30,162 nucleotides of DNA from IMG/VR virus record IMGVR_UViG_3300034072_001335, positions 1 to 30,162 of that record; one strand, given 5' to 3'. Each line of letters opens with the position of its first letter. Positions within the stretch are counted from its first letter, which is position 1. The position numbers and the translations under genes were made by a program. The notes under the pieces were generated by a model. That model was not told where the DNA came from. It made no database searches and saw only the letters and a list, made by a program, of their open reading frames with translations. The DNA is from a virus. This document shows, in pieces, positions 575 through 25,451 of the stretch.

Positions 575-588
575 TTATAAATTGAATT
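563..588 (-). terminator. AT-rich hairpin at end of HEPN operon (possible terminator)
   Basis: On the minus strand AATTCAA (from 588-582) can pair with TTGAATT (69-63 of the 500s, i.e. 569-563) and is followed by a T-rich run (562-556). It overlaps the stop codon of the HEPN gene at 575-577. The stem has almost only A-T pairs, so termination would be weak. The bidirectional ssrA hairpin further downstream is a stronger backstop. Confidence 0.35.
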
Positions 589-1411
589 CTGTATTGACTT
601 GATTGCGACATTTAATCCAACTCATCTTCACAGGAATAGTTCCGTTGCTTGCATCTCTTTGCGAATAGAACATACTCCAAACGATTTTGAATTTTTTATC
701 TGCCAGACTCGGAATCCAAGACGGTGTTTCTCTCCATTTAATAGCCCATCTCTCAATAAGCTCTTCAAACATGAGGTTGTTTGAGGCCACAACCAAGGCA
801 TTGCAAACTGCCAACAATTCTTGGAACTGTGCAAACTCAATTTTTATTTTGGTGAGGTCTTTACTGCCTGGTAGCTGAAGCTTAATTCCATTTTTACCTG
901 CTAGAGTTTTACCGGAGTGCACAACGCCATGTCTCAATTCACAAATCTTATCAAACTCATCCAGAACTGGAGATAAGCCCAAAGCTTTAAAATCTATACC
1001 AATAAACTTTTTACCGGTGTTTATTATATTTTCTGCTGACGCTAACGAAATATGCTCGAATGCCCCCCGTTCAATCTCTTTATTAGGGTGCCAGATCACA
1101 GAACCAAGATTGATGGTGTTTAGAGAAGAAGTTTTTTGCGAGTAGCTACATACTTGCAAGATTAGACTGAATATCTGGCGATAGTAATTTTCAACACTTG
1201 AAACTACAGCAATCATGGCAAGTGGACCAGCCCAGCTACCAGCGTGCCAAGAGCCCGTAGGAAACAGATGTAAAATACTCTGTATTTCTGAGTAAAAAGT
1301 ATCAATCGGAGATTGCGAATTAACTGCAGTATACGAAACGTAACTGTTAAGATCGTTTATACGCTCTACCCCAACTGGTTGGGTGATGCTATTGCGCCAG
1401 CTTTGAATCAT
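575..1411 (-). CDS. Predicted HEPN-domain protein (putative RNase effector)
   Basis: This 278-residue protein has no recognised full-length family. It contains the HEPN signature Rx4H as RHGVVH at residues 160-165, directly after a helical stretch (about 147-160), and another helical segment around 64-90 and 190-222. In HEPN RNases the Arg and His of this motif form the dimer active site that cuts RNA, and HEPN domains are common effectors of toxin-antitoxin, abortive-infection and CRISPR systems. The start codon overlaps the stop of the upstream ATPase gene by four bases (ATGA, 1408-1411), so translation is probably coupled and the two products probably act together. Its AT content is clearly higher than that of the phage structural genes. 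It could instead be a non-catalytic HEPN-like partner, since the call rests on a short motif plus context. Confidence 0.6.
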   Translation of the reverse strand: MIQSWRNSITQPVGVERINDLNSYVSYTAVNSQSPIDTFYSEIQSILHLFPTGSWHAGSWAGPLAMIAVVSSVENYYRQIFSLILQVCSYSQKTSSLNTINLGSVIWHPNKEIERGAFEHISLASAENIINTGKKFIGIDFKALGLSPVLDEFDKICELRHGVVHSGKTLAGKNGIKLQLPGSKDLTKIKIEFAQFQELLAVCNALVVASNNLMFEELIERWAIKWRETPSWIPSLADKKFKIVWSMFYSQRDASNGTIPVKMSWIKCRNQVNTEFNL

Positions 1412-3087
1412 GCTATAAATTCTTCCGCATAACTTCTAATTTTTCTCGCCCAAATAGGCCCGATCATGCTCACGCTTCTCAATTCTTTATTGTCGTGATC
1501 CATTAAAATATCTTTTACAGTCTTTATATTAGAGTTACTTTTTATGGAAAGCGCTCTCTTTGATGTAATTGGCAAGCAAAGTATGTCTTGACTTACAATG
1601 TCTTCAAACACTGAAGCATCCTTAAGCTTCGCGCCACAATTCATGCAGAATTTAGCATCATTTGAAATTCTAGGCGTTTTACACACATCACATGGAGGAA
1701 GAGCTAACGAAAAAACCTCATCGACACTCTTGTTTGAAAGTAATGATGATTCAGTGTGTCTTGGATAATGATGATTAGGGCGATTCAAAAAAGCATAACA
1801 ATAATTTTCAGAATTTATAGCTCGACTACTGAAAAAAACATTTCGTTCAATCAATGCCGAATAGTGCAATTCAAATAGCTCATAAACTCCTTTTTCTCCT
1901 CTGTTGCTAATGCCATTTCTCGACAAAAGTCCCGCATACTGAAAAAATCCAACGACTTTTGTCAGTTCGGAGGATATAGGTCTTTTGACTGCAATAATTG
2001 AACTCTGCTTTTTTATGTCGCCTCCTTTATTAAATTCTTTTATTATTTTAAGTGAACCTTCGTAAAAGCTTGAGCCTGCATCAACGAAATTTCTATACAT
2101 GGGCAGTTTTATTTTTAAAGATTCGTAAACCGCATAAGTCTCATTAAAATTATTCTTAATTGCTTTAAGGACCTTTTTATTATCTAGTTTTAAAGGTTTA
2201 TCATCCTCTTCGTCGTAAAATGATGAAATCATGTTTAATAATGATCTAGGGATTCCGTATGCAGCAAAACACAATAAATTTAACAAGTTTTTTTCACTCA
2301 TCAACCTGCTAAACACATCTTTTTCAAATCTAGATTCCAAAAGTGAATGCATGAATTCTAGATAACCCTCACTCCCAGGTTTAACCCAAACATCAATTTC
2401 CTCAGCATCATGTCCAATATGAAAGGATGATGAATAGTTAATTACACCTGGATAAACGGCCGCCTTGGGAGATATGCTTCTGGACTTTACTTGCCTAAAA
2501 AATTCAAAAAAATCTTTTTGTTGATCCGAAGAAAACGCATGTCCGGCATCGTCAAGTAGAAGAATACATCTAGTTTTTTCTAATGCTTCACAGCATTTAT
2601 CCGTAAAATCATGAATATCTGTTACTGTTACCCTTTCTTCTTCACTTCTTAATAAATCGATCCTTCCTAGTTCAAGTAGTTCAATATTCTTCCTAATCAA
2701 AAAAACATTTAGTCTAAATAAAACTCTGTTATTTGATAGTTCATCGAGGGTTTCATATATACCCAATAGGATTTTCATCAAAATCCACTGATTAAACCAA
2801 TAAGCAGCATTGGTATTATTCTTATAAAGTGGTTCCAGCTTTAAAGATGACTTAAAATTCACATATACAGGAAAACCTGTGGAACCACTCCCTTTGAGCA
2901 GACGGTTATATGCTTTCAGCATTAAGGTTGTTTTTCCACAACCTCTTGGACCGGTAATTAACTTCGCACCAGCCTGAGTTAGTTTTCTAATAATTTCTGA
3001 CTCGTTCTGGTGGCTTATTGACCACTTTCTAAAAAGTGCCCCCGATAGATATTCAGCCTGCTCTGTAAAAATTTCAGAATCAATCAT
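1408..3087 (-). CDS. ORC/CDC6-like P-loop ATPase with zinc ribbon and HhH C-terminus
   Basis: This is a 559-residue ATPase. Walker A is TGPRGCGKTT (residues 45-54) and Walker B is CILLLDD (174-180), followed by a conserved-looking KAAVYPGVINYSSSFHIGHD (208-227) that recalls the bacterial ORC-CDC6 family of AAA+ ATPases. GIPRS (278-282) could be a sensor-2 type motif. The middle part (about 300-420) is helical and may be a winged helix. A C4 zinc ribbon follows (C466xxC469, C481xxC484). The last 55 residues resemble the helix-hairpin-helix domain of RNA polymerase alpha CTD, with MIGPIWARKI at 541-550. The zinc ribbon and HhH suggest nucleic-acid or RNA polymerase contact. It is the first gene of a two-gene operon with the HEPN gene, has its own promoter region, and is AT-rich. 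I infer the role of sensor/switch in a defence or toxin system. Confidence 0.7.
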   Translation of the reverse strand: MIDSEIFTEQAEYLSGALFRKWSISHQNESEIIRKLTQAGAKLITGPRGCGKTTLMLKAYNRLLKGSGSTGFPVYVNFKSSLKLEPLYKNNTNAAYWFNQWILMKILLGIYETLDELSNNRVLFRLNVFLIRKNIELLELGRIDLLRSEEERVTVTDIHDFTDKCCEALEKTRCILLLDDAGHAFSSDQQKDFFEFFRQVKSRSISPKAAVYPGVINYSSSFHIGHDAEEIDVWVKPGSEGYLEFMHSLLESRFEKDVFSRLMSEKNLLNLLCFAAYGIPRSLLNMISSFYDEEDDKPLKLDNKKVLKAIKNNFNETYAVYESLKIKLPMYRNFVDAGSSFYEGSLKIIKEFNKGGDIKKQSSIIAVKRPISSELTKVVGFFQYAGLLSRNGISNRGEKGVYELFELHYSALIERNVFFSSRAINSENYCYAFLNRPNHHYPRHTESSLLSNKSVDEVFSLALPPCDVCKTPRISNDAKFCMNCGAKLKDASVFEDIVSQDILCLPITSKRALSIKSNSNIKTVKDILMDHDNKELRSVSMIGPIWARKIRSYAEEFIA

Positions 3088-19057: not shown

Positions 19058-19079
19058 GGATTAAAGGGTTTTGCTAATT
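19058..19079. repeat. 22-bp direct repeat, copy 1 (moron 3' edge)
   Basis: The sequence GGATTAAAGGGTTTTGCTAA plus TT is identical to 28245-28266. This copy overlaps the last codons and stop of the gene at 19074. Both copies lie at the downstream edge of an AT-rich membrane-protein gene inserted in the late operon. Confidence 0.9.
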
Positions 19080-19901
19080 GATAGCGCAGCAATCAAAAAC
19101 AGCTTGTTCGATACTCTCATCATCATATATCGGGAATTCATGCTCCACAGCTTCTCCCTCAATTTTAATTAGTTGAGCCCTACCTTTGATCAATTCGTGA
19201 TTTATTAAGCTGTCGACCATCCTTATAAATCCCAATATATGCTTTCTATTTATATGTACCTGCTTAACGGTATTTTCGATAAGGTTTTCCGTATATTGCG
19301 CCAAAGTGATAATCGGTTGAGGACCTAATGCCTCAACATACTTTTGGATGATAAGATTGTTATAACTTGTACGCAGCGGCTCTTTTTTGATCAGGTTAAA
19401 TTGTTTTAACAACTCTTTGTGAATGTTGTCTCTCTCATTCCAACTGCCAACATATGAGTTAGAGTGCGTTAATATTGATGAGTACAGCAATGGATCAGAA
19501 AGACTACTTAGTTCCTCTTCAGAATAGCTACTTTCAGTTATAAAACTTAACCTGGCACAATCGAAGTCTGATGATTCTCCCTTATACATTCTGGCTCCGG
19601 CCAAAAACCCCCTCAACTCAGGTACAGAAAATTTACCTGAATGATAGTTGTCAAGGCAAAACTCCATTGTGCGAGTAAGTTGTATCATTGAAATGATAAA
19701 TTGATTACTTGCTTTCACTTTCTCAACCTCATCATCAATTCTCTGCTTGGTCTGAATATTTCTGAGAGCAAGCGACGCACCGATATAAACACACAGGATA
19801 GTAAGTGAACCTTTTAACAACGCAAAAGTAACATCGTATAGAGGCTTAAAATCAAAAAGCTCCAGGAGGGCGTAATAAAATCCGATACAGGTCTCAATCA
19901 T
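19074..19901 (-). CDS. Inserted membrane-anchored protein of unknown function (moron)
   Basis: This 275-residue protein has one clear hydrophobic helix near the N-terminus (about 25-47, TFALLKGSLTILCVYIGASL) followed by a basic stretch (RNIQTKQR), which predicts a cytoplasmic C-terminal domain of about 225 residues that is mostly helical. I recognise no family. It sits between the gp31/G gene and the protease, where Mu-like phages have no gene, and it is much richer in A+T than both neighbours. An AAGGA box precedes the ATG. A TATACT box about 80 bases upstream could be a private promoter but lacks a good -35. The features fit a moron, perhaps superinfection exclusion or abortive infection, which is an inference. 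Confidence 0.75.
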   Translation of the reverse strand: MIETCIGFYYALLELFDFKPLYDVTFALLKGSLTILCVYIGASLALRNIQTKQRIDDEVEKVKASNQFIISMIQLTRTMEFCLDNYHSGKFSVPELRGFLAGARMYKGESSDFDCARLSFITESSYSEEELSSLSDPLLYSSILTHSNSYVGSWNERDNIHKELLKQFNLIKKEPLRTSYNNLIIQKYVEALGPQPIITLAQYTENLIENTVKQVHINRKHILGFIRMVDSLINHELIKGRAQLIKIEGEAVEHEFPIYDDESIEQAVFDCCAIN

Positions 19902-20474: not shown

Positions 20475-20737
20475 TACTCAGCGTCCTCGAACATCAATTT
20501 GATTTGTTCTTCAGTGGCATCAGCATAAATCGACTCGACTACCCAACCAAAGCGGCTGGCATCTTCACCAGCTGCAGCGCTCGCCAGCTTCTGCAGTTCG
20601 CGGATTTGTTTTAACTTTTCCGGAAAAGGCAGCTCGGTTTTTAACAGTGCAAATGCCTGGTCGCTATAAGGCGTTGGCTCAGGCTTGGGATAAGTGCCAT
20701 CGGCCAGCATTTGCTGCACCTTTTCTAAAATATCCAT
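20474..20737 (-). CDS. Small hypothetical phage protein
   Basis: This 87-residue, acidic and helical protein (MDILEKVQQMLADGTYPKPE ... DATEEQIKLMFEDAE) is encoded between gp30 and gp31-like genes, adjacent to the stop of the former (20738) and overlapping the latter by one base. No motif is recognised. Tight packing shows that it belongs to the late operon. Confidence 0.7.
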   Translation of the reverse strand: MDILEKVQQMLADGTYPKPEPTPYSDQAFALLKTELPFPEKLKQIRELQKLASAAAGEDASRFGWVVESIYADATEEQIKLMFEDAE

Positions 20738-22159
20738 CTACTGCAGTACCTGTTTCATTAAGTTGTCGAAGTATAGCGCAATGTCTTTATTCCAGGACTC
20801 TAACGCTTTGCGATTTAATACCCACATCACAAACAACTCCGCATGCCATTCCTTATGATTGGTCTGGCCGTAGGTGGTGAGCCAATCATATAGCCGACTG
20901 TGGGGCAAACCAGCCTTATAGTGCACCTGATGCCCCATTTCATGCAGCCAGTTTGTCAGAATCGCGGCATCTTGCCCATGTGTATTAAAGCGTTTGATAA
21001 AGTCTGACAACGTGAATGCTGGTTGACCACTTTGCTTTAAAAGGACCACGGCGTCCACGCTTCGGCGCATTTCGTTTATCACTGTCCTGCTCAATGCCAT
21101 ATCAGCGTTTGTTTTGATTACCACATGGTTAAAGACTCTTGACGTAAAACCATCGGCGCTGAGGTAGCCCGTTGTTGTCATCAGGTTCATCGGATGATAA
21201 CCAGCAAGTGGGCCTACATAACTCTGCACATCAGCCAGTATTTTTGTGGCCGCAACCGCTTTAGGGTTCATTTCTGCTTGCTTGATAAACAGCGTTTTTA
21301 GATCGTGCTTTTTGATAAAAGCGCTGAGCTGGGTTACTTCCGGTGCTGCTGATGTCTCCATTAACTCCTGTAGCTTTTCATTGAGTCGATGCACGTTTAC
21401 ACCAGGCACTGTACTAAAGGCCGATGGCACCAGACGCTCAGGTAAACGCTCAGCCAAAGGCGGTTGCTCTGCAGCTTGTAGCTTAGCCCTCTCGCTACTG
21501 CTTATTTTCCCTGGTGCGTAGTCGAAGCCCGGATCAATACCTTTGGCGACCCAGTGCACTTCGCCAGTTTTCTTGTCTGTCCACTCGCGCATTTCAATCA
21601 CAGGCTCAGGTGAGACCTGCAGTTTTTTTCGTGCTAGGCTTTGCTTGGTTTCACCGACCACACGGCACTTACAGCCCCAGCCATTTTGTGGAAACCACAC
21701 ATCCCACCAAGGACTGGTGCGGGGCAGTACTTTGTTGTGATTGGCCTGATGCGCTGGACGTGGGTAGCGGCTATCGCCATGCACGTAACGCCAGAACTCA
21801 AAGTTTTGCAGTTGCTGGTAGCGTCCGGCATTGTAGCTTTGGCGCATATTAGTGTCGTAAATCACACCAGCCCGCCAGGCAGCATCGCCTGTATGATCCC
21901 AGCCCGTGCGTTTAACTATGTTTTTAAACTCGCGTTTAAACCAGTTTAAACTCTTACCTTCAGCGATGGCTGAATCCACGGCGTTGCGTAAATCACCCAG
22001 CAAACTGGTGGTCATGGCTCCGGCGACGGTAAAGGCAGTGTTGTGCTGCTCCTTCCATACATCCGTCCAGCGTTCACCAGGCACATTAAGCTTGGCCCTG
22101 AAAAACGCGATGGCCTCTTTAAATGGCAGTGAGCCATACTGAGCTTTGCCGATGGCCAT
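20738..22159 (-). CDS. Mu gp30/F-like minor head protein with C-terminal zincin-like domain
   Basis: This is a 473-residue protein. Residues about 50-170 match the Mu F-like head morphogenesis family: WRAGVIYDTNMRQSYNAGRY, a HGDSRYPRPAHQANHNKVLP segment and the ending FPQNGWGCKCRV. These proteins bind the portal and help start head assembly. Beyond residue about 280 there is an additional domain with a zinc-protease motif HEMGH (406-410) and a possible third ligand in EWHAELF (437-443), a pattern of gluzincin-like peptidases. The fused domain may be injected with the DNA or act in head maturation. Start overlaps the portal stop by one base. Confidence 0.88.
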   Translation of the reverse strand: MAIGKAQYGSLPFKEAIAFFRAKLNVPGERWTDVWKEQHNTAFTVAGAMTTSLLGDLRNAVDSAIAEGKSLNWFKREFKNIVKRTGWDHTGDAAWRAGVIYDTNMRQSYNAGRYQQLQNFEFWRYVHGDSRYPRPAHQANHNKVLPRTSPWWDVWFPQNGWGCKCRVVGETKQSLARKKLQVSPEPVIEMREWTDKKTGEVHWVAKGIDPGFDYAPGKISSSERAKLQAAEQPPLAERLPERLVPSAFSTVPGVNVHRLNEKLQELMETSAAPEVTQLSAFIKKHDLKTLFIKQAEMNPKAVAATKILADVQSYVGPLAGYHPMNLMTTTGYLSADGFTSRVFNHVVIKTNADMALSRTVINEMRRSVDAVVLLKQSGQPAFTLSDFIKRFNTHGQDAAILTNWLHEMGHQVHYKAGLPHSRLYDWLTTYGQTNHKEWHAELFVMWVLNRKALESWNKDIALYFDNLMKQVLQ

Positions 22160-23757
22160 TAGTCACCTTGCTCAACATCATAACGGCCAGCAAGCTCAGC
22201 AGCTGCCAAGGCTAATTGCAGTAGCTCCTGCAGTTCGGTGTCATTGAGCTTGCCTTCCAATTCCAGCAGTTGCTGCATCAGCTCTTCCAGGCTGGATGCG
22301 TTTTGTACCAGCTCTTCAATCGGCTTCATCAGTTTGGCCATCACTGGGGCGGCTTTGCTTTTCAGCTGCTTTGCCAGTAAATCAGCCGTGTCTGGCTCTT
22401 CCACTGAATTCGTCGCTTTGAGCGAGGCTAACGCAAGACGCAAAGACGCGGTTTTATCTTTTGGTTCAGGCGTTACAGACTGGATAGGCGCTGCAGCTGG
22501 AACCCCTAATACAGGCTCGTTATTCTCTGGCTGTGGGATCATCAATTTGGTGTGAGCCCAGCTCTGTGGAATTTGCATTCCCACACCCACCAGCTTAGGC
22601 AAGGCTTCTGAGAAGGTCTGAATGTCTTCCGGCGTTTCAGTATCAAACACCAGGCGCGGCATACGGCGCGGATCACCGTTGTAGGACTTGCCGTTTAGCA
22701 TGTGCATAGGCCACAGCACATGGTTGTTTAAGGTGCTAGCGATTTGACGCAGGTCATGATCACGAATATCTAACCGGACTTCATTATGCACATTACCCAG
22801 TGCCTGGCTGCCGGTGCTATCGACCTGAGCAGTTAATGTCTGCCCCAGGATAACTTTCGACTGGATCCGTTCACACCAGCTCATCATGGTCATAAAGGGC
22901 TCACCGCCACCTTTGGCCGCTTCGATAAAGTCCATTTCCATGCCTTTGGGCATAATGCCAGCACTGTTATGGCCAACACTCCATACCGCCTGCAGCAGCT
23001 TGTTTTTTTCATCTGGCGTGGCACCAGAGGGGTATTTACCTATACGAATCGGAATACCGTAAATCTCTAAAAACTCCGCCAGGTCGCGCACTGAATAGTT
23101 TTTAAAAACAAAAGGCCAGGCTAACTGACGCACTAAACCTGTACGGGCCACATAACCGCTTTTGCTGGCGTGGCGATGCTGGATCCAATTCAAGGGCTGC
23201 AGTTCTTCACCTTCAGCCGTGCCATTACGCAGCACGATTTTATTCTGGTCACAGAGCGACAACTGAAACCAGGTGGCCAGACGGTGCTCAAAGGCTGACG
23301 GGATCCGAAAGTTGTTATAGCTTTCCCAGCAGAACTCGGTATTACTAAACCCCTTTAAAATGGCGTCGGACATATTAAAAATGACGTCTTCAAAATCTGG
23401 GATGTCAGCAATAATGTCGGCATAGTTTGCAGCGTCTTTTTTCTCCTGGGCCGAAGCGTTACGGGGTGGTTTGATTTGAAAAGGGATGCTGGTCAACGCC
23501 ATGCGGCGTTTAAACAACTCGGCATGAATATGGCCGTCTTTCTCTTCAATATCTTCTGCCAGGTAACACTGGCCTAACAGATTGCCTTGCTCTGCATCCG
23601 TTAAAATGGCCGCCAAGGTGGCTGGGGTTAAGCCACGGCTTGGATGCTCAGCGAACTCACGGCGCAGCTGAATAATGCGCGGGCTGTTATCGGTTTGTTT
23701 TGTGGCTAGTTCTTTTTCGCGCACTCGGTACAGAGTGCCATTTTTATCCTGGTGCAT
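22159..23757 (-). CDS. Portal protein, Mu gp29-like (DUF935)
   Basis: This protein of 532 residues fits the DUF935 portal family: LTPATLAAILTDAEQGNLLG near the N-terminus, HIHAELFKRRMALTSIPFQI, FKNYSVRDLAEFLEIYGIPI in the middle, and GQTLTAQVDSTGSQALGNVH. The portal forms the dodecameric vertex for DNA packaging and tail attachment. I chose the ATG at 23757, which overlaps the terminase TAA by one base and has an AGGA box about eight bases upstream. The ATG at 23766 would place that box on the start codon itself. The C-terminal third is helical and Leu/Glu-rich. Confidence 0.92.
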   Translation of the reverse strand: MHQDKNGTLYRVREKELATKQTDNSPRIIQLRREFAEHPSRGLTPATLAAILTDAEQGNLLGQCYLAEDIEEKDGHIHAELFKRRMALTSIPFQIKPPRNASAQEKKDAANYADIIADIPDFEDVIFNMSDAILKGFSNTEFCWESYNNFRIPSAFEHRLATWFQLSLCDQNKIVLRNGTAEGEELQPLNWIQHRHASKSGYVARTGLVRQLAWPFVFKNYSVRDLAEFLEIYGIPIRIGKYPSGATPDEKNKLLQAVWSVGHNSAGIMPKGMEMDFIEAAKGGGEPFMTMMSWCERIQSKVILGQTLTAQVDSTGSQALGNVHNEVRLDIRDHDLRQIASTLNNHVLWPMHMLNGKSYNGDPRRMPRLVFDTETPEDIQTFSEALPKLVGVGMQIPQSWAHTKLMIPQPENNEPVLGVPAAAPIQSVTPEPKDKTASLRLALASLKATNSVEEPDTADLLAKQLKSKAAPVMAKLMKPIEELVQNASSLEELMQQLLELEGKLNDTELQELLQLALAAAELAGRYDVEQGD

Positions 23758-25451
23758 TACCAACATCCTGAAGTGTGTGAATATGCAGAGGGCTCATCGC
23801 CCTGGTGAAGTGCCGTAACTGGGGTAAAGTCGATAGCGCCGCCTTCCATCCAACTGGCTCGAATGGCCATTACCAACGCGACAGCAAAGTCGCCGTGACG
23901 CTTGCCTTTGCCCGTATTTGATGCCAAATCCTTTTGTCGGCCTTTATCAATCTGAGGGATGCCGTTTTCTACTTTGATATGGAGTAAATCATCCAGCACA
24001 CACTGGTGGCGCGGCAGTTCAAGATTAAAGCTTTCGAATTCTGCTTTGAGCTTCGGCATCCATTCGCCATACCAGCCCGCAGTTAAGTGCACGCAGTCAA
24101 TCGCTTCACTGCCGAATTTAAGTGCCGCTTGCTCTGCCAAATAACCACCATTACCGGTGGCATCAAAGGCACCAGAGCAGAATCGCGGTAGCCCTTGCAT
24201 GATGTATAAAAGTGCTTGCCACTGTTGGTTGTAAGTGACGTTACTTAGCTCTACAACAAACGGCACTCGTTTGCGTAAGTCAGGCTTGATAGCCAAAGGT
24301 ACAAAGACAGATAAGTCGCCTTTGCGTGCAAAGTCTTCACCCAGCACATGGCGGTCAGCCCAGCTGAGCTTTTCAAGTTCAGGCTTAACCGTGGTTTCAA
24401 GCCATGTGGCCATTTCGGCCATGCGCATTTCTTCTGTCCAGGACTCCCAGTTCTCAGGTGACTCAAAGCGGTGAATGGGGATGCTGCGGTCTGCAACCAT
24501 TGCCGTTTCGATCAGAATTCGGCTCAGGTAGTTACCGCCTGATCTCTTCGGCACACAGCCATATTCTTCGTCTGCACATTCTTTATTTGGCGCGTTTTTG
24601 TATAGTCCATCACGCCACTTTTGCTCAGCCTCAGGCGTCCATGTTTGCCCAGTGACATAGCAGATCCTTTTGTACAAGCCCTCTGCAATAGCGCTGTCTA
24701 GGGTAATGGTATGGACTGAGTAATCTTTCTTGCCCTCCCGCGCATCCTGAATGTATGAGTTAAAAGCGTTGTCTACGCCATTGTGTGTACTGATTAAACG
24801 AACCTTATTGCCCCACATGGTTAGCGCTAAAGCAGCTTTTAAAAGCTCTTCCAGTGATTCATGAAAAGCCGCTTCATCTATCACCACGTCGCCCTGCAAG
24901 CCCCGTAAGTTGCTTGGGCGCGAACTTAACGCCTGAATTTTCCGGCCAGACTTCGGAAACCGGATCATGTAGGTCAAGATTTCTTCTTTCTTGGTGTTAT
25001 CCCAGAAGGTCTGTTCATACACATCTGCTTCGGCAAGGCTATTAAATGCCTTGGCAAATAGGGCACAGGCAGCGATGTATTCCAGCGCCATTTCTTGTTT
25101 ACTGCCCACATAAAAGGTATTGCAACCACCGCGCCTGCGTGGCTTCGCTGCATTAATCACATTGCGGCCAGCCTCTGCCCAGGTTAAACCTGTACGGCGG
25201 CTTTTCTCCGCAATCATGATTTGAGATCCATCTTCAAACCAGCGCTGCTGGTAGGGTAGAAATACGGGCTCTTTGGTTGGCAGTGCATCTGCGATGTCTT
25301 GCGGAACGTCGACCCCAAGTAGATCCATTTCTTCCTGCAGGTCGATTTTTCGGGGAGCTGAAATTGCTTTCAGCCCCTTAATGCGGGCGGGTCTGGCTGT
25401 GTCAGTCTTTTTCAAACCTTTGAAGCCAGTGCTTTTTTTGGCTGCGACCAT
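23757..25451 (-). CDS. Terminase large subunit, Mu gp28-like
   Basis: A 564-residue packaging motor and nuclease. The ATPase part has a Walker A-like EKSRRTGLTW (82-91) and Walker B DVVIDEAAF (188-196), with a coupling motif RLISTHNG (218-224 region). The nuclease part has acidic residues in GEDFARKGDL (371-380), FDATGNGG (429-436) and RHGDFAVAL (518-526), the RNase H-like pattern of terminases. The basic N-terminus (KKSTGFKGLKKTD) is a usual feature of the Mu group. It directly precedes the portal gene and follows the gp27-like small subunit. Confidence 0.94.
   Translation of the reverse strand: MVAAKKSTGFKGLKKTDTARPARIKGLKAISAPRKIDLQEEMDLLGVDVPQDIADALPTKEPVFLPYQQRWFEDGSQIMIAEKSRRTGLTWAEAGRNVINAAKPRRRGGCNTFYVGSKQEMALEYIAACALFAKAFNSLAEADVYEQTFWDNTKKEEILTYMIRFPKSGRKIQALSSRPSNLRGLQGDVVIDEAAFHESLEELLKAALALTMWGNKVRLISTHNGVDNAFNSYIQDAREGKKDYSVHTITLDSAIAEGLYKRICYVTGQTWTPEAEQKWRDGLYKNAPNKECADEEYGCVPKRSGGNYLSRILIETAMVADRSIPIHRFESPENWESWTEEMRMAEMATWLETTVKPELEKLSWADRHVLGEDFARKGDLSVFVPLAIKPDLRKRVPFVVELSNVTYNQQWQALLYIMQGLPRFCSGAFDATGNGGYLAEQAALKFGSEAIDCVHLTAGWYGEWMPKLKAEFESFNLELPRHQCVLDDLLHIKVENGIPQIDKGRQKDLASNTGKGKRHGDFAVALVMAIRASWMEGGAIDFTPVTALHQGDEPSAYSHTSGCW

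What the first reader, a model, noticed from the sequence alone, without database searches (positions are those of the whole stretch)
20738..21620. Zinc-metalloprotease-like domain fused to the minor head protein
The F-like domain ends near residue 170, but the protein extends to 473 with HEMGH at 406-410 and a possible third ligand in EWHAELF. The minor head protein is a few copies per virion and may enter the cell with DNA. A fused peptidase could act on capsid, host defence proteins or the cell wall.
Basis: partly seen in the sequence, partly recalled or inferred. Interest (0 to 1): 0.55.

Follow-up and report, generated by a model that had tools for sequence, protein, structure and literature searches.

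The report
Phage head protein with protease module
A Mu-like phage carries, on a minor protein of its head, what looks like an intact zinc protease of the anthrax-lethal-factor / Pro-Pro-endopeptidase fold, nearly always paired with a small neighbouring gene that is probably its inhibitor, which suggests a protease brought in by the virus and kept off until needed.

Summary
The F (minor head) gene, window 22159-20738 (-), codes for 473 aa: a MuF domain (Pfam 57-167) and a C-terminal domain (about 241-473) with HEMGH at 406-410. AlphaFold gives that domain at pLDDT about 97; it matches the anthrax lethal factor catalytic domain (Z 11.8) and Pro-Pro endopeptidases (Z 9.8); other metal hydrolases come at 5.9 or less. 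H406, E407, H410, Y430 and E437 are invariant in 58 of 58 relatives. In a sample chosen by the N-terminal domain alone, 31 of 31 complete relatives with this domain keep the full site; other relatives carry a PBECR nuclease-like domain or no extension.

An 87-aa helical gene follows F directly. Its family stands next to 143 of 149 such F genes and to 0 of 53 F genes scored as lacking the domain; 23 of 23 hits found by the small gene alone sit behind a metallopeptidase domain. Homologous pairs occur in cyanophages. I read it as a two-gene module: a virion-borne, probably injected protease and its cognate inhibitor. The domain assignment is firm; delivery, target and inhibition are inferred. MuF-metallopeptidase fusions are a known kind; the fold assignment and partner family are the additions.

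The parts
20738..22159 (-). F gene, Mu-like minor head protein, 473 aa
   Evidence: ORF; PF04233 E 2.1e-12 at 57-167; phrog_220 'minor head protein and DNA pilot' E 2.7e-83 over 5-454
21659..21991 (-). MuF core domain, residues 57-167
   Evidence: Pfam PF04233
21440..21520 (-). variable linker, residues about 214-240
   Evidence: pLDDT 59-69 in blocks 211-240; median identity 0.30 against 0.59 for MuF and 0.35 for the domain
20741..21439 (-). C-terminal gluzincin metallopeptidase domain, residues 241-473
   Evidence: model pLDDT mostly above 94; LF catalytic domain Z 11.8, PPEP-3 Z 9.8; 58-sequence alignment
20930..20944 (-). HEMGH, residues 406-410: two His ligands and catalytic Glu
   Evidence: on helix 395-415
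20870..20872 (-). Y430, invariant, catalytic-Tyr position 7 residues before E437
   Evidence: 58 of 58
20849..20851 (-). E437, candidate third zinc ligand, on helix 435-456
   Evidence: 58 of 58; helix
20474..20737 (-). partner gene, 87-aa helical protein; its ATG follows the F stop codon directly
   Evidence: phrog_18304 E 1.4e-5, unknown function; family association; model pLDDT 92.9, five helices
20028..20474 (-). G gene (virion morphogenesis, Phage_tail_S), overlaps the partner gene by one base
   Evidence: ORFs; PF05069 E 1.5e-24
22159..23766 (-). portal gene (Mu type), upstream of F
   Evidence: PF06074 E 8.8e-98

Best explanation
The F protein of this Mu-like phage carries a zinc endopeptidase domain of the LF/PPEP-like gluzincin type with an intact active site at its C-terminus (shown by sequence conservation and predicted structure). 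F is encoded beside the portal as a minor head protein (shown by family and synteny; presence in virions is shown in print for the F of a relative), so a few protease copies probably ride in each particle and enter the host with the DNA, where they cut a limited set of host proteins, for example defence or regulatory proteins (inferred). The 87-aa helical protein encoded directly behind F is the cognate partner (shown as a near-obligate association), most likely an inhibitor or immunity protein that binds the domain and keeps it off in the producing cell until packaging (inferred). The pair is a swappable cassette on the F gene (shown).
For: Fold. Weak sequence support: profile against PDB chains, LF 2l0r E 0.0018; Pfam ATLF in 8 of 12 domains, best E 2.6e-4, but 0 families for the window's own domain. 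Active site: H, E, H, Y, E in 58 of 58; 31 of 31 in the N-terminally selected sample; 61 of 61 complete cyanophage relatives. Swapping at a shared N-terminal domain: of 10 F proteins picked from those without the domain, 4 have PBECR2 clearly, others are short F of 232-264 aa. Partner: adjacent in 143 of 149 loci, 0 of 53 without the domain; of the 6 exceptions 3 have it displaced downstream, 1 has a small ORF that the profile does not recognise, 2 lie at contig ends; reverse search 23 of 23. Homologous partner in cyanophages: hhalign P 2.4e-6 against a best P of 0.034 for 35 decoy families. Precedent: the MuF toxin gene apk2 is followed by iapK, whose product occludes the toxin's active site (PMC12226406, passages); [quoted passage not shown] Virion presence of a relative's F: MuM16-1 p29 found by mass spectrometry (PMC8541194, passages; p29 is the Mup30 homologue).
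Against: No activity, delivery, target or interaction data. MuM16-1 F lacks the metallopeptidase domain, so virion presence is by analogy. Head genes are late, so a classical immunity role in a quiet lysogen is doubtful, and a chaperone or packaging role for the small protein fits the association equally well. Partner divergence correlates with domain divergence (rho 0.39) hardly more than with MuF divergence (0.37). The partner's model has no PDB match.
Confidence: 0.57

Rival explanations
1. Morphogenetic protease: the domain trims F itself or head proteins during assembly, as suggested for metallopeptidase domains of polyvalent phage proteins, and the small protein regulates this.
For: Iyer et al. 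propose processing roles for such domains, citing phage P1 DdrB (PMC5512222 section 8). The linker between MuF and domain is flexible.
Against: A Mu-type head protease I is present (PF10123). Near relatives with the same head genes lack the domain. No conserved cleavage-like motif in the linker: position 233 is P in 22 and 234 is P in 17 of 58.
Confidence: 0.17
2. Interbacterial toxin in the strict sense: particles kill or arrest non-lysogenic competitors, and the small gene is the lysogen's immunity gene.
For: MuF polymorphic toxin model of Jamet et al., with small downstream ORFs (PMC5576092, passages).
Against: A head-gene operon would not be expected to be expressed in a quiet lysogen (general knowledge). 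Pelagibacter phage Kolga, with no annotated integrase, carries a similar F domain.
Confidence: 0.17
3. Structural or binding domain that has kept a zinc site without proteolysis; the small protein is a head-assembly chaperone.
For: F is a structural protein; the small gene sits inside the head gene run.
Against: The catalytic Glu and Tyr, not only the ligands, are invariant in 58 of 58.
Confidence: 0.09

Closest known systems
MuF polymorphic toxins (Jamet et al. 2017, PMC5576092), e.g. Apk2-IapK (PMC12226406)
   Same: MuF N-terminus, swapped enzymatic C-terminus, head module, small gene directly downstream; 20% of 191 MuF toxins were said to carry a metallopeptidase domain
   Different: Here the enzyme is an LF/PPEP-type gluzincin in Mu-like phages of Gammaproteobacteria, and the downstream gene is a specific family of its own, with homologues behind the same kind of domain in cyanophages
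Anthrax lethal factor catalytic domain (peptidase family M34, family number recalled) and Pro-Pro endopeptidases
   Same: Fold (Z 11.8 and 9.8), HExxH, downstream Glu ligand, Tyr seven residues before it (LF and PPEP ligand numbers partly recalled)
   Different: 15% identity; fused to a phage head protein; substrate unknown
Metallopeptidase domains of polyvalent phage proteins (Iyer et al. 2017, PMC5512222)
   Same: Zincin domain on a virion protein thought to be delivered; their N4 RNA polymerase example also pointed to lethal factor
   Different: Two-domain protein, not a large polyvalent one; dedicated partner gene
PBECR / MuF_C C-terminal domains of Mu-type F proteins
   Same: Same place at the end of F
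   Different: Nuclease-like domain; no adjacent partner of this family

Membership tests
LF/PPEP-like gluzincin metallopeptidases | HExxH on a helix | tested here: met
   H406, E407, H410 in 58 of 58; helix 395-415
LF/PPEP-like gluzincin metallopeptidases | Glu third ligand on a following helix | tested here: met
   E437 in 58 of 58; helix 435-456
LF/PPEP-like gluzincin metallopeptidases | Catalytic Tyr seven residues before that Glu | tested here: met
   Y430 in 58 of 58; exact spacing in 146 of 149 loci; the comparison numbers for LF and PPEP are partly recalled
LF/PPEP-like gluzincin metallopeptidases | Fold | tested here: met
   Z 11.8 LF 1pwv_B, rmsd 3.0, 158 aligned; Z 9.8 PPEP-3 9g0j; edema factor's domain 7.7, then 5.9 and below; predicted model only
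Pfam ATLF (PF07737) | Curated sequence profile above cut-off | tested here: not met
   No Pfam or NCBIfam peptidase model hits the window protein; ATLF weak in 8 of 12 relatives. So I claim fold and site, not membership of PF07737
LF/PPEP-like gluzincin metallopeptidases | Zinc-dependent proteolysis | not testable with these tools
   needs protein
MuF polymorphic toxins | N-terminal MuF domain | tested here: met
   PF04233 E 2.1e-12
MuF polymorphic toxins | C-terminal extension of at least 100 aa, polymorphic at a shared N-terminus | tested here: met
MuF polymorphic toxins | Small ORF directly downstream | tested here: met
MuF polymorphic toxins | Toxicity neutralised by the partner | not testable with these tools
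   needs an expression test
MuF polymorphic toxins | Temperate phage | tested here: inconclusive
   Mu-like late genes and relatives inside bacterial genome contigs, but no transposase was identified in the 30-kb record and none was searched for specifically

The most novel reading that the evidence does not exclude
A mobile two-gene cassette, a virion-carried LF/PPEP-type protease and a dedicated small helical inhibitor encoded directly behind it, is shared between Mu-like phages and cyanophages, so that particles inject a self-restrained protease that is freed from its inhibitor only on delivery and disables a host protein at the start of infection.
Probability: 0.4. Interest if true: 0.72.

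Novelty: new variant of a known kind. Interest (0 to 1): 0.5.

Why it matters
Most C-terminal extensions of phage MuF proteins have no known role. Here one common type gets a fold, a complete active site and a near-obligate partner family, which makes a bench test simple: express the domain with and without the 87-aa protein and look for toxicity, binding and cleavage products. If it is an injected protease, its substrate would point to a host process that phages attack on entry.

Tried and rejected
Autocleavage at a Pro-Pro in the linker (PPEPs cut Pro-Pro): the linker is variable, P233 in 22 and P234 in 17 of 58; not supported. Third ligand E441: D in one relative of the 58, so E437 preferred. 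Pfam, NCBIfam and PADLOC scans of the F protein gave nothing for the domain; a PDB sequence search with the single protein gave nothing. Homology of the Pelagibacter phage Kolga small ORF to the partner family: 4.5 bits, E 1.9, not significant, and only 2 relatives were found, too few for a profile. The 7rdr hit matches 19 residues of the MuF part and passes in no stretch; taken as chance. Fold search of the partner found nothing at E <= 0.001; this is no evidence of a new fold. L131 was a weak locus with no F gene found and is not counted. The gene at 19074-19901 shows no relation to MuM16-1 p31 (E 0.32) and has no match in the phage collection. Print searches; their listings and the passages I read named neither this domain in Mu-like F proteins nor its partner gene, but supplements (for example Table S7 of PMC5576092) could not be read, so some of these proteins may be listed there.

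Limits of the counts: the 149 and 53 loci hold repeats of the same contigs; by distinct complete F proteins the figures are 100 with the domain, 95 of them with the partner adjacent, and 48 without the domain. Three of the 53 (L062, L086, L174; the last two one contig) are F genes broken in frame whose domain and partner follow in a separate ORF. Loci were found by a pattern holding HExGHQ, so HExxH conservation in them, and in most of the 58, is partly built in; Y430 and E437 were not in the pattern. One of the six patterns also held the motif.

Full report
What is there. The window is a 30,162-base virus record with Mu-like late genes on the minus strand: portal (PF06074), F, a small ORF, G (PF05069), protease I (PF10123) and major head protein T (PF10124). 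F is 473 aa. Pfam finds only the MuF domain at 57-167; phrog_220, 'minor head protein and DNA pilot', aligns over 5-454. HEMGH lies at 406-410 and EWHAELF at 437-443; the expected number of HExxH in a protein of this composition is 0.03.

The domain is a metallopeptidase by fold. An alignment of 58 F proteins gave a model with mean pLDDT 87.9; from residue 241 on it is mostly above 94. HExxH sits on helix 395-415 and E437 on helix 435-456. Foldseek's ten best PDB matches are all anthrax lethal factor, the best at E 5.6e-4; the low whole-chain TM scores I put down to the multi-domain query. VIA-align places residues 241-473 on the LF catalytic domain with Z 11.8, rmsd 3.0, 158 aligned, 15% identity; Pro-Pro endopeptidases follow at 9.8 to 8.6, a stretch of anthrax edema factor at 7.7, then other metal hydrolases at 5.9 and below. 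The pTM of the whole chain is only 0.58, which I read as two domains on a loose linker. By sequence the kinship is weak: LF at E 0.0018 from the profile, Pfam ATLF in 8 of 12 relatives and M90 in 4 of 12, none in the window's own domain.

The site is complete and kept. H406, E407, H410, Y430, E437 and A440 are identical in 58 of 58; E441 is D in one. PPEP-1 mutants named (E143A, Y178F) mark the same catalytic Glu and Tyr; that the ligand Glu of PPEP-1 and LF follows the Tyr by seven residues is recalled, and it fits Y430/E437. Most of the 58 were found through a pattern with the motif, so I took a sample chosen by the MuF part alone: of 80 loci, 75 have a complete F ORF, 31 carry the domain, and 31 of 31 have HExxH...Y-x6-E. 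Among 53 complete F ORFs scored as without the domain, one has a stray HExxH. Of the 34 genome loci, 33 have both the MuF part and the domain, and L131 has neither in an F gene; they lie in Shewanella, Colwellia, Alteromonas, Pseudoalteromonas, Aeromonas, Photobacterium and others.

The end of F is swapped. With the same N-terminal domain, relatives have this domain, a PBECR2 nuclease-like domain (4 clear of 10 scanned), an unassigned extension, or nothing (F of 232-264 aa). Median pairwise identity among 87 distinct relatives is 0.59 for MuF, 0.35 for the metallopeptidase, 0.42 for G and 0.23 for the small gene.

The partner gene. The F stop codon is followed at once by the ATG of an 87-aa ORF, which overlaps G by one base. 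Its family was built by iteration: 143 of 149 complete F loci with the domain have it within 60 bases of the F stop, 0 of 53 without. Of the six exceptions, L093, L120 and L168 have it a few hundred bases further on, L106 has a small ORF that the profile does not recognise, and L021 and L051 lie at contig ends. In the N-terminal sample it is 30 of 31 adjacent plus L168 displaced, and 0 of 44 without the domain, one of which (L174) is a frame-broken F with domain and partner further on. Searching IMG/VR with the small gene alone returned 23 confirmed loci, and 23 of 23 lie behind a complete metallopeptidase domain. Named phages fit: YPCBV-1 (short F), phiSHP3, Fc02, CF78a, Mu and MuM16-1 have F followed directly by G, while HS6, ZX4290 and the Aeromonas plasmid prophage have a small gene between. 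The family is acidic (median net charge -7 over 87, range -15 to 0); the window's member is predicted as five helices, pLDDT 92.9, without a PDB match.

Beyond Mu-like phages. Tblastn with the domain alone reached cyanophage head proteins at E 2e-3 and pelagiphage ones at 0.9. A scan with the cyanophage domain gave 62 loci. With L017 added, 61 of 63 were complete, all 61 with the full site, and 60 of 61 had a small gene of one family directly downstream. Profile comparison of the two small families gives probability 89%, P 2.4e-6; 35 other small-ORF families from the same loci gave at best P 0.034. So the pair is shared, by transfer or common descent, between two phage groups whose other head genes I did not compare. 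The Pelagibacter phage small ORF could not be linked.

Mechanism. Shown: a domain with an intact gluzincin site on a head protein and a near-obligate small partner. From print: F of the Mu-like siphophage MuM16-1 is in the virion (PMC8541194, passages), though that F lacks this domain; MuF toxins as a class, including metallopeptidase ones, are proposed to be injected (PMC5576092 passages; PMC5512222 passages and section 8); Apk2, a MuF toxin, is held by IapK, encoded next to it, which covers the active site (PMC12226406, passages); the prophage toxin Bxa has two immunity proteins (PMC11699363, abstract). Inferred: that this protease enters the cell, that it cuts host rather than head proteins, and that the partner inhibits it. 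The accessory, swappable nature of the domain and the separate head protease speak against a core assembly role. Because head genes are late, the partner is better seen as a restraint in the producing cell than as immunity of a quiet lysogen.

Novelty. The kind (MuF protein with enzymatic tail, sometimes a metallopeptidase, small ORF downstream) is in print. The LF/PPEP-type fold with its full site in Mu-like F proteins, and the partner family bound to it in two phage groups, I did not find in the searches; supplementary tables could not be read.

Noticed in passing
window 19074-19901 (-): 275-aa ORF between G and protease I, matching only phrog_21267 of unknown function (E 7.8e-11), no match in the phage collection. 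The same gap holds an SGNH/GDSL hydrolase in HS6, a reverse transcriptase cassette in MuM16-1, and nothing annotated in ZX4290: a likely cargo site.
   Followed up: partly
window 575-3087 (-): Two ORFs at the far end of the late genes: a 559-aa ORC-CDC6-like / AAA ATPase (Pfam E 9.4e-14; weak PADLOC PDC-S01 E 1.5e-4) and a 278-aa ORF without a match; possible defence or cargo pair.
   Followed up: no
window 20735-20740 (-): The F stop codon TAG is followed in the same frame by the partner's ATG; reading through would fuse the two. The same offset is seen in L002 and L003, but many relatives use an overlap in another frame.
   Followed up: partly
L086/L174 (one contig) and L062: F broken in frame, with the metallopeptidase domain in its own ORF followed by the small gene.
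   Followed up: partly
L093, L120, L168 downstream of F: Insertions of some 200 to 560 bases between F and the partner gene.
   Followed up: no
L304 45152-47207: Pelagibacter phage Kolga, with no annotated integrase, has a head morphogenesis protein with a similar metallopeptidase end and a 56-aa ORF overlapping its stop, unlike the published link of MuF toxins to temperate phages.
   Followed up: partly
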